From a virus, in the IMG/VR virus record IMGVR_UViG_3300012920_000123, positions 1-34,761 of that record: a stretch of 34,761 bases of DNA; one strand, 5' to 3'. Positions 8,896 through 10,029 of this stretch are shown piece after piece. Below the pieces are notes generated by a model. That model searched no databases and had not been told where the DNA came from. It saw only the letters and a list, made by a program, of their open reading frames with translations. Each line of letters begins with the position of its first letter. The first letter of the stretch is position 1. A program made the translations under genes and the position numbers.

Positions 8896-9149
8896 TACCA
8901 AAGCCACAAGCCACGAGCTCACCTGAGCTCTCACACCTCATGAAACCTAAATTTATAATTTACCAAAGCCACAAGCCACGAGCTGCAAGCAGCTGTAAGG
9001 GCTGTTATTTTTTTATTCTAAAAAACCACAAGCAACAAGCCACGAGCTGCGGTGAGCTGCTGGCAGCTCTCAGGGTCGACGGCCAAAACTTTTATTTTTT
9101 TATAAGCACAAGCAACAAGCGCCGCGGCGAGCTGCTGGGCAGCTTAAGG
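8896..9149 (+). repeat. Left CAAGC heptad array with hairpins (four units)
   Basis: Four imperfect units start near 8900, 8965, 9029 and 9109. Each has (A/C)(A/G)AGC pentamers stepped exactly 7 bases apart (8900/8907/8914; 8965/8972/8979/8986; 9029/9036/9043; 9109/9116). Three are followed by a short perfect hairpin: AGCTGC-AA-GCAGCT, GAGCTGC-TG-GCAGCTC, AGCTGC-TGG-GCAGCT; unit 1 has GAGCTC twice. AT-rich spacers (TTATTTTTTTAT) separate the units. The region follows a terminator and holds no credible gene. Role unknown; origin, packaging or regulatory site are possible. Confidence 0.85.
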
Positions 9150-9150
9150 C

Positions 9151-9179
9151 TTGACAATCACCTATTCAGGGATTATATG
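9151..9179 (+). promoter_or_regulatory. Promoter for the GP88-like gene
   Basis: Perfect -35 TTGACA (9151-9156), 17-base spacer, -10 TATATG (9174-9179). The ATG at 9205 follows with AAAGGA between. The sequence after the -10 (TGGGAATT) resembles the word found in three other promoter gaps. Confidence 0.6.
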
Positions 9180-9204
9180 GGAATTAGAAAGGAAAAATAT
9201 TTTT

Positions 9205-9810
9205 ATGAATAAAAAAGAATTACAGCGGCTGACTGGCTCACTGTCCAAGCCTTCGAAAATGCCTGGTTGGAGCTACGGGTTACCTGCTAAAGAGTGCAAA
9301 ACAGGCGGCAAGCTGCAGGCTGTGAAGGGCTCGACTTGTTATGATTGCTACGCCCTGAAAGGCTGTTATGCCTTTAAGGTAGTACAGGCAGCTCAATACT
9401 ACAGATTGGACAGCTTGAAACATCCTGGATGGGTTAAGGCCATGGCTGCCCAGATCAGCGCCAAGCGATCAAAAGAATTTAGATGGCACGACAGCGGAGA
9501 CGTTCAGGACCTGAAGCATCTAGCTAAAATTTACAAAGTTTGTAAGTTGACCCCTGACATTGACCATTGGCTGCCGACGCGTGAAGCTTGGATCAAAAAG
9601 TATGAAAGCCGAGCGCCTAAAAATCTTTGCATAAGATTTAGCGCGCCCATGGTAGACCAGGCAGCGCCGAGCTCATGGCCTAACACGTCAACAGTTGTTA
9701 AGGACCCAAAAAAGGCGACATGTCCCGCACCGCAGCAGGGCAACAAATGCTTGAGTTGTCGAGCTTGTTGGAATAAGAAAGTTAAAAATATTGCTTATCT
9801 GGCTCACTAA
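9205..9810 (+). CDS. GP88-like cysteine-rich phage protein (201 aa)
   Basis: Contains MPGWSYGLPAKECKTG (19-34), CYDCYALKGCYAF (45-57), FRWHDSGDV (92-100), HWLPTRE (121-127) and a C-terminal CxxxxxxxxCLSCRAC cluster (173-188). This order matches the phage gene product 88 family as I know it, whose biochemistry is unknown. The cysteine clusters suggest a metal or Fe-S centre; a link to radical-SAM-like enzymes is speculation. I start it at the ATG at 9205, because an upstream TTG at 9151 would lie in the promoter. Two 60-base rows inside it are 52-55% GC against about 30% elsewhere, suggesting transfer. It sits between two CAAGC arrays. Confidence 0.8.
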   Translation: MNKKELQRLTGSLSKPSKMPGWSYGLPAKECKTGGKLQAVKGSTCYDCYALKGCYAFKVVQAAQYYRLDSLKHPGWVKAMAAQISAKRSKEFRWHDSGDVQDLKHLAKIYKVCKLTPDIDHWLPTREAWIKKYESRAPKNLCIRFSAPMVDQAAPSSWPNTSTVVKDPKKATCPAPQQGNKCLSCRACWNKKVKNIAYLAH

Positions 9811-9860
9811 TGACTCATTGTTTCCGACACCCAAAATTTTACCAGGAATTGAAAAAGCTA

Positions 9861-10029
9861 CAAGCACAAGCTACAAGCGAAGAAAAAAATAAAAATAAGT
9901 TACAAGCTACAAGCAACAAGAAAAGTTACAAGCTTCAAGCATCAAGATCAGAACCAAGCAGCAAGCGTTCAATATGATTCCAATCATCAAGCGCCAAGCA
10001 TGGCGTTTCACGATGATCGAGCAGCAAGC
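9861..10029 (+). repeat. Right CAAGC heptad array, entering the nuclease gene
   Basis: Twelve CAAGC words in 169 bases, at 9861, 9867, 9874, 9903, 9910, 9929, 9936, 9955, 9962, 9988, 9995 and 10025. Five pairs are spaced exactly 7 bases. Groups start at 9903, 9929, 9955 and 9981 (CAATC), a 26-base step. There are no unit hairpins, unlike the left array. From 9935 it overlaps the C-terminal codons of the leftward nuclease gene. All copies are on the plus strand. Confidence 0.85.

What the first reader, a model, noticed from the sequence alone, without database searches (positions are those of the whole stretch)
8896..10029. GC-rich GP88-like gene bracketed by two related arrays: a possible mobile or self-contained module
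The cysteine-rich GP88-like gene is over 50% GC in the two rows counted, lies between two arrays of the same heptad, has its own TTGACA promoter and is terminated from its left neighbour. Array-gene-array suggests a module in which the arrays are either boundaries or binding sites for the gene product. The protein has two Cys clusters and an unknown activity, so an RNA- or DNA-modifying metalloenzyme acting on the repeats is a testable idea.
Basis: inference. Interest (0 to 1): 0.8.

Follow-up and report, generated by a model that had tools for sequence, protein, structure and literature searches.

The report
Repeat-bordered swappable gene cassette in pelagiphages
In a family of very common ocean phages that infect SAR11 bacteria, a small GC-rich gene (GP88) sits between rows of the seven-letter repeat CAAGCNN, and comparison of hundreds of relatives shows that the repeats mark the edges of a patch where different small genes are swapped in and out beside a gene for a recombination-type nuclease.

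Summary
Window 8896-10029 has 22 CAAGC (shuffles: mean 4.2, maximum 13) and 7 pairs exactly 7 nt apart (shuffles: at most 1). It is 45.5% GC against 34.2% in the rest of the window. The window belongs to the HTVC027P-like pelagiphages. In 50 relatives checked, CAAGC is about 20-fold (upstream) and 55-fold (downstream) denser beside GP88 than elsewhere in the same contigs. Arrays lie only on the GP88 strand. The CAAGC core is held at nucleotide level, including silent codon positions, while NN varies freely.

The arrays are not specific to GP88. They border several unrelated small genes in an island between terL and terS, often abutting a TTGACA promoter. GP88-less relatives regain homology at the downstream array, and recombination breakpoints are about 3-fold enriched at arrays. 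Beside the array lies a convergent PD-(D/E)XK nuclease with a Holliday-junction-resolvase fold (Z 10.4).

Best reading: array-bordered, exchangeable transcription cassettes, with GP88 the commonest cargo. GP88 carries seven invariant cysteines with QueE-like spacing, suggesting an Fe-S, radical-SAM-like protein; this is not proven. I found no evidence that GP88 acts on the repeats. What recognises CAAGC is unknown.

The parts
8896..9140 (+). Upstream composite array: four direct units (about 8880-8929, 8945-8994, 9009-9058, 9089-9138), each with CAAGC/CGAGC heptads followed by GAGCTGC-type inverted repeats; ends just before the TTGACA promoter
9151..9178 (+). Sigma-70-like promoter: TTGACA 9151-9156, 16-nt spacer, TTATAT 9173-9178. 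In relatives 134 of 187 upstream arrays are followed by TTGACx, 93 directly abutting
9205..9810 (+). GP88 (PF17338), 201 aa, seven invariant Cys (C31, C45, C48; C173, C182, C185, C188); candidate Fe-S, radical-SAM-like protein
9810..9977 (+). Small ORF overlapping the GP88 stop (TAATG), conserved N-terminus 'HPK(Y/F)Y.EL'; its Q/A/S/K-rich tail is encoded by the heptad array
9855..10029 (+). Downstream CAAGCNN array, 12 CAAGC; junction at which homology resumes between GP88-bearing and GP88-less relatives
9935..10312 (-). Convergent PD-(D/E)XK nuclease, Holliday-junction-resolvase (Hjc/RecU) fold, motif G-x-PD...E-x-K...SPHQ; C-terminal tail reads into the array; present in 93 of 93 complete regions examined
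10362..10898 (+). Terminase small subunit; right flank of the variable island
8247..8804 (+). 185-aa + strand gene of the island (phrog_1987), followed by an intrinsic-terminator-like hairpin about 8814-8848; its relatives also lie near arrays
7177..8160 (-). 327-aa conserved gene of unknown function; left flank of the island (terL lies at 4721-6196 -)

Best explanation
The structure is one instance of an exchangeable gene-cassette island in HTVC027P-like pelagiphages, between the terminase genes. Each cassette is a small, self-contained unit on the strand opposite to most phage genes: promoter (TTGACA), ribosome-binding site, one or two small genes, then a CAAGCNN heptad array. The arrays are boundary elements. 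They separate neighbouring units, and they are the stretches of common sequence at which different cassettes are joined and exchanged between related phages. Exchange is probably by homologous or annealing recombination, perhaps helped by the phage exonuclease and the adjacent Holliday-junction-resolvase-like nuclease. GP88 is the commonest cargo, expressed in its own early-to-middle time window, and is probably an iron-sulfur, radical-SAM-like enzyme with an unknown substrate. Shown by computation: linkage, strand polarity, nucleotide-level core conservation, cassette variety, junctions at arrays, and predicted folds. Inferred: that recombination uses the arrays, that the resolvase takes part, and what GP88 does. 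The factor that makes CAAGC the conserved core is not identified.
For: Density beside GP88 in 50 relatives: 9.9 CAAGC per kb upstream and 29.4 downstream, against 0.53 elsewhere. An array-only scan of viral contigs found 119 loci; 87 carry GP88 and every array beside it is on the GP88 strand. Nearly all the other 32 carry terL, terS or nuclease of the same family. In ten larger records arrays occur only around that locus, with none for the reversed control pattern. Nucleotide-level constraint: 859 consecutive spacings of exactly 7 in 106 non-redundant tails, all 16 NN in use, and core changes at silent codon positions 3 of 681; core changes 4-9% against 31-38% in NN. Several unrelated gene families are array-bordered. 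Homology resumes at the array in GP88-less relatives L112, L127, L143, L193, L204, L213, L370 and L174. Breakpoints at arrays: 14 of 74 against 4.7 expected, for example L037/L067 and L452/L453 at about 99% identity. Resolvase fold Z 10.4 and a PD...ExK motif. HTVC027P gp33 (= GP88) and gp34 form their own temporal expression cluster, high at 6-9 h (PMC12753301; gp33 identity).
Against: Only 14 of 74 breakpoints lie at arrays, so arrays are not the only junctions. Similarity between arrays pulls alignment ends into them and inflates the count. Homology resuming at the array is partly expected, because the array overlaps the conserved nuclease gene. A 5-of-7 conserved repeat is a poor homologous linker, so recombination alone does not explain why CAAGC is fixed and NN is free. 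The nuclease is also kept in two relatives without arrays.
Confidence: 0.5

Rival explanations
1. The arrays are expression elements. As repeated protein- or Rho-binding sites at the 3' end of each + strand transcript and just upstream of the next promoter, they insulate and time small transcription units. Recombination at them is a side effect.
For: 134 of 187 upstream arrays run into a TTGACA promoter, and downstream arrays lie at the gene end with almost no promoter after them (2 of 164). One strand only. The array strand is C-richer than G (68 C/51 G upstream, 42 C/35 G downstream). gp33/gp34 are expressed separately from their neighbours. A 7-nt period suits a single strand better than a double helix.
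Against: The element is used at no other gene end in these phages, and the phage has ordinary hairpin terminators. Rho does not require a fixed CAAGC. No RNA-end data were available.
Confidence: 0.25
2. The arrays are slippage-born heptameric repeats with no function, in a recombination-prone GC-rich patch, tolerated because CAAGCNN gives no stop codon in any + frame.
For: Heptameric repeats with fixed and variable positions are over-represented in some bacteria and polymerase slippage has been proposed (PMC4692102). CAAGCNN arrays also occur between genes in Pseudomonas and other bacteria without GP88.
Against: Slippage predicts identical neighbouring NN and equal decay of all positions. NN is diverse while the core is about 5-fold more conserved, even at silent positions. 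The array tail appears at least as conserved as GP88 between close relatives (by eye). Strand polarity is total.
Confidence: 0.13
3. GP88 (or its small partner protein) recognises CAAGC in DNA or RNA: autoregulation, or modification of the repeats by an Fe-S enzyme.
For: Very strong linkage of arrays with GP88. Some relatives lacking one lack both (L400, L429; HTVC023P). Metal-binding signature in GP88.
Against: Arrays flank other genes in islands without GP88. Distant GP88s have no arrays. A clade with GP88 has hardly any 7-nt arrays, its CAAGC copies being looser and partly 8 nt apart.
Confidence: 0.08
4. The arrays are selected as coding sequence: low-complexity K/Q/A/S tails of small proteins on the + strand and L/A/C/G tails of the nuclease on the - strand.
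For: Open frames read through the array on both strands; CAAGCNN gives the same peptide in all three + frames.
Against: Silent positions of the core almost never change (3 of 681) while first codon positions change more (20 of 688). The window's own nuclease tail does not follow the tail pattern of most relatives.
Confidence: 0.04

Closest known systems
Heterogeneous heptameric repeats of Xanthomonas (GGGANTN)n and Nostoc GGGGA(C/T)T (Rehm et al. 2015, PMC4692102)
   Same: Seven-nucleotide period, fixed core with free positions, intergenic placement, unknown function
   Different: Those are dispersed at nearly 200 chromosomal sites and can form G-quadruplexes; these sit at one locus of a phage genome, on one strand, bordering swapped genes
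Module-boundary sequences of lambdoid phages and start-associated repeats (SAS/ESAS) of cluster K mycobacteriophages (from memory, not tested)
   Same: Short conserved sequence at gene or module borders in mosaic phage genomes
   Different: Not tandem heptads; SAS sits at start codons, whereas here arrays sit at gene ends and upstream of promoters
Integron gene cassettes / attC arrays
   Same: Works-like only: small genes with a repeated border element, variable order and content
   Different: No attC or integrase was looked for beyond the genes examined; cassettes here carry their own promoters; border is a simple direct heptad
GP88 family PF17338
   Same: The protein is a clear member
   Different: The family has no known function; distant members in other phages lack the arrays
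Hjc/RecU-type Holliday junction resolvases and VRR-NUC domains (PD-(D/E)XK)
   Same: Predicted fold (Z 10.4, 110 aligned, 3.0 A) and catalytic motif
   Different: Sequence similarity is below Pfam cut-offs; the same fold also serves a homing endonuclease (I-Ssp6803I, Z 8.3); activity untested
QueE and other radical-SAM enzymes
   Same: CX13CX2C against CX14CX2C in QueE (PMC4389238); radical-SAM structures lead the fold list (QueE Z 6.4, spore photoproduct lyase Z 6.2)
   Different: Z below 8 is not decisive; canonical CX3CX2C absent; SAM binding untested

Membership tests
GP88, PF17338 | Profile match above the curated cut-off | tested here: met
   E 1.7e-28, 100.5 bits against cut-off 24.4; all 38 aligned relatives match
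Radical SAM superfamily | Canonical CX3CX2C cluster motif | tested here: not met
   Invariant spacing is C31-X13-C45-X2-C48
Radical SAM superfamily | Partial TIM-barrel fold | tested here: inconclusive
   Model pLDDT 94.6; best Z 6.4 to QueE, most of the top rows are radical-SAM enzymes, but below the trust level of 8; Foldseek has no match below E 0.1
Radical SAM superfamily | SAM binding and reductive cleavage | not testable with these tools
   needs the purified protein
Hjc/RecU-type PD-(D/E)XK nuclease | PD...(D/E)xK active-site motif | tested here: met
   P32 D33, E47, K49 and P60-H61-Q62 invariant in 34 sequences
Hjc/RecU-type PD-(D/E)XK nuclease | Resolvase fold | tested here: met
   Z 10.4, rmsd 3.0, 110 residues against Hjc 2wj0; RecU Z 9.6-10.1; model pLDDT 81
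Hjc/RecU-type PD-(D/E)XK nuclease | Cleavage of four-way junctions | not testable with these tools
   biochemistry needed
Heterogeneous heptameric repeats | 7-nt period with fixed core and variable positions | tested here: met
   859 spacings of 7; all 16 NN found
Heterogeneous heptameric repeats | Dispersed at many sites of a genome | tested here: not met
   one locus only in ten larger records
CRISPR array | Longer repeats separated by unique spacers of similar length | tested here: not met
   5-nt core, 2-nt spacer
Integron cassette array | attC sites and a nearby integrase | not tested
   no targeted search was made
Transposon / insertion element | Clean insertion with terminal inverted repeats or target duplication | tested here: inconclusive
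   right junction at the array in GP88-less relatives, left junction diffuse; no empty site found

The most novel reading that the evidence does not exclude
A phage-encoded cassette-exchange system: single-polarity CAAGCNN arrays act as specific landing pads that the neighbouring resolvase-fold nuclease (with the phage exonuclease) uses to swap complete small transcription units between co-infecting pelagiphages, in effect an integron-like device without an integrase.
Probability: 0.17. Interest if true: 0.85.

Novelty: new variant of a known kind. Interest (0 to 1): 0.62.

Why it matters
Pelagiphages are among the most abundant viruses in the ocean, and most of their early genes are unexplained. 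If arrays are exchange borders, they show how these phages trade small takeover genes as ready-made expression units, and they give a sequence tag (CAAGCNN on one strand) for finding such genes in metagenomes. GP88, in hundreds of phage contigs and strongly expressed in its own time window in HTVC027P, becomes a concrete candidate Fe-S enzyme to test.

Tried and rejected
Packaging (pac) site between terS and terL: rejected as the main reading, because the relative HTVC023P has both terminase genes but no arrays. CRISPR-like array: spacers are 2 nt. Known RNA: no Rfam match in the window. Defence-system gene: no PADLOC match for GP88 or the nuclease. Solved relative of GP88 by sequence: none. 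Protein-level selection on array tails: rejected by the codon-phase test. Plasmid relatives: one distant partial hit. Papers on GP88 as a phage family: searches returned mostly progranulin papers or nothing. Bacterial CAAGC arrays as the source: none of 118 stretches carries GP88. A Pseudomonas-genus survey of the heptad could not be centred with the tool. Possible iron-box consensus papers were not held. No empty site with two clean junctions was found.

Full report
WHERE IT IS. The window is a 34.8-kb virus record. Its portal is 66-68% identical to those of Pelagibacter phage HTVC027P and phage 023Pt_psg01, and both have the same order terL - GP88 - terS. It is therefore an HTVC027P-like pelagiphage; HTVC027P is placed in the HTVC023P-type group (PMC9599517). 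GP88 is at 9205-9810 (+) and matches PF17338 at E 1.7e-28.

THE OBSERVATION. The interval 8896-10029 has 22 CAAGC, 7 of them followed by another exactly 7 nt on. Shuffles with the same dinucleotides gave a mean of 4.2 (max 13) and at most one such pair. The remaining 33.5 kb has none on either strand. GC is 45.5% against 34.2%. The promoter, the terminator of the left neighbour and the two cysteine groups are there. The left array is composite (four 64-80-nt direct units with hairpins). The right array overlaps coding sequence on both strands: a 55-aa ORF starting in the GP88 stop codon, and the end of a convergent gene.

RELATIVES. A protein scan of viral contigs found 470 GP88 relatives (80 kept). 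In the 50 checked, CAAGC density was 9.9/kb in the 600 nt upstream, 29.4/kb in the 400 nt downstream and 0.53/kb elsewhere. GP88 lies beside the array in 87, and every array in those 87 is on the GP88 strand. Most of the 32 without GP88 carry terS, terL or the nuclease of the same family, many with the array near a contig end. In ten larger records (18-56 kb) arrays occur only around this locus and the reversed control pattern has no match. Searching instead with terS gave 52 loci, none with arrays on the opposite strand. One GP88 clade has hardly any 7-nt arrays: its CAAGC copies are looser, partly 8 nt apart.

WHAT IS CONSERVED. In 106 non-redundant downstream tails, 859 consecutive CAAGC are exactly 7 nt apart and all 16 spacer dinucleotides are used. 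Between relatives, core positions differ in 4-9% of comparisons, spacer positions in 31-38% and flanks in 16% (alignment of repeats favours the core somewhat). Inside open frames, core changes at silent third positions are 3 of 681, at first positions 20 of 688, at second positions 4 of 686. Selection is therefore on the nucleotides, not the peptide. CAAGCNN cannot make a stop codon in any + frame and gives the same repeated peptide in all three, so open frames through the array are expected and are not evidence of coding.

NOT A GP88-ONLY FEATURE. Distant GP88 genes in HTVC033P, CRP phages, Seuss, ct2os315 and AM24 have no arrays. In the pelagiphage island the arrays border several unrelated small + strand genes: a RIADALEEIL family (31 loci), an HNDL family (16), a 110-aa SETCEEQL family (8) and others. 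Some islands have arrays and no GP88 (L193, L213, L143, L370, L414). L400 and L429 lack both but keep the nuclease. Of 187 upstream arrays, 134 are followed by TTGACx and 93 abut it directly; of 164 downstream arrays, 2 are. The repeating layout is promoter, gene(s), array, next promoter.

SWAPPING. Aligning GP88-less relatives with GP88-bearing ones, homology to the right resumes at the downstream array in L112, L127, L143, L193, L204, L213, L370 and L174. Among abrupt breakpoints between otherwise at least 92% identical contigs, 14 of 74 fall within 15 nt of an array core, 4.7 expected. Examples are L037/L067 (98.7% over 3.7 kb), L452/L453 (98.9% over 3.0 kb) and L016/L026 (98.1% over 2.5 kb). 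Alignment ends are drawn into arrays, so the enrichment is an upper estimate, and most breakpoints are not at arrays.

THE NEIGHBOUR NUCLEASE. In 93 of 93 complete GP88 regions the array is followed by a convergent gene (window 9935-10312 -). It has invariant P32-D33, E47-x-K49 and S59-PHQ. Its predicted fold matches Holliday-junction resolvases best: Hjc Z 10.4, RecU Z 9.6-10.1, also homing endonuclease I-Ssp6803I Z 8.3. Pfam hits to Hjc and VRR_NUC are below cut-off. A recombination role is inference from fold and place. An exonuclease-family gene lies at 12408-13172.

GP88 ITSELF. Thirty-eight diverse sequences keep C31, C45, C48 and C173, C182, C185, C188. The model is confident (pLDDT 94.6). 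Radical-SAM structures lead the list of structural neighbours, QueE first at Z 6.4, below the level that proves kinship. QueE also has an unusual CX14CX2C cluster motif (PMC4389238), close to CX13CX2C here. In HTVC027P the GP88 gene is gp33; gp33 and gp34 form their own temporal cluster, highly expressed at 6-9 h after infection, and gp33 is stated to be of unknown function (PMC12753301). This fits independent transcription of the array-bordered units.

CONCLUSION. Its boundary reading is favoured; its idea that GP88 acts on the repeats is not. The best model is an island of exchangeable transcription cassettes whose borders are CAAGCNN arrays next to a resolvase-fold nuclease (0.5). The chief rival is a purely transcriptional boundary element (0.25); the two can both be true. 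Why exactly CAAGC at a 7-nt period is fixed remains unexplained.

Noticed in passing
Upstream of GP88 in relatives, e.g. L104 (three copies), L003, L061; not in the window: Hairpin elements TGATCCC-T-GG...CC-T-GGGATCA with a fixed outer stem, a conserved T-T mismatch and a variable inner part whose arms change in step; matched in 60 of 170 GP88 regions. Of 120 contigs found by the hairpin pattern, 102 carry GP88; no Rfam match.
   Followed up: partly
window 8857-8873 and 11301-11317: 17-bp palindrome TTTAGAATNATTCTAAA (one mismatch each in the window); 30 sites in 410 kb of relatives against 0-1 for shuffled palindromes. It resembles the alphaproteobacterial Irr iron-control box as I remember it; the consensus could not be checked in held papers.
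   Followed up: partly
L081 5477-5597 (HTVC027P, upstream of GP88); L046 6837-6958; L171 2151-2276: Rfam RF02976 Flavobacterium-1 RNA in pelagiphage contigs.
   Followed up: no
L222, L235, L240, L245, L256, L263 (Pseudomonas) and L248, L252 (Alcanivorax, Halomonas): CAAGCNN arrays also occur between genes in bacterial chromosomes, in several Pseudomonas loci followed by an inverted GCTTG array, without GP88.
   Followed up: partly
L003, L005, L008, L009, L082, L457, L461, L481 near GP88 or arrays: A recurring GGGTGGGCCC(GCCCA) element beside the arrays.
   Followed up: no
L149 588-1301 (oriented with terS on +); L481 1572-2195: In the place usually held by GP88 these islands carry other Cys-containing proteins (L149 ...CPQASKGCLKSC...; L481 ...CNFCYS...CTGQKCKDCLLC) that look like distant GP88/DUF7227 relatives; not profile-tested.
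   Followed up: no
CRP-125, CRP-171, CRP-113, CRP-4, CRP-2, AM24 records: Distant GP88 homologues lie at or near the ends of the deposited phage genomes.
   Followed up: no
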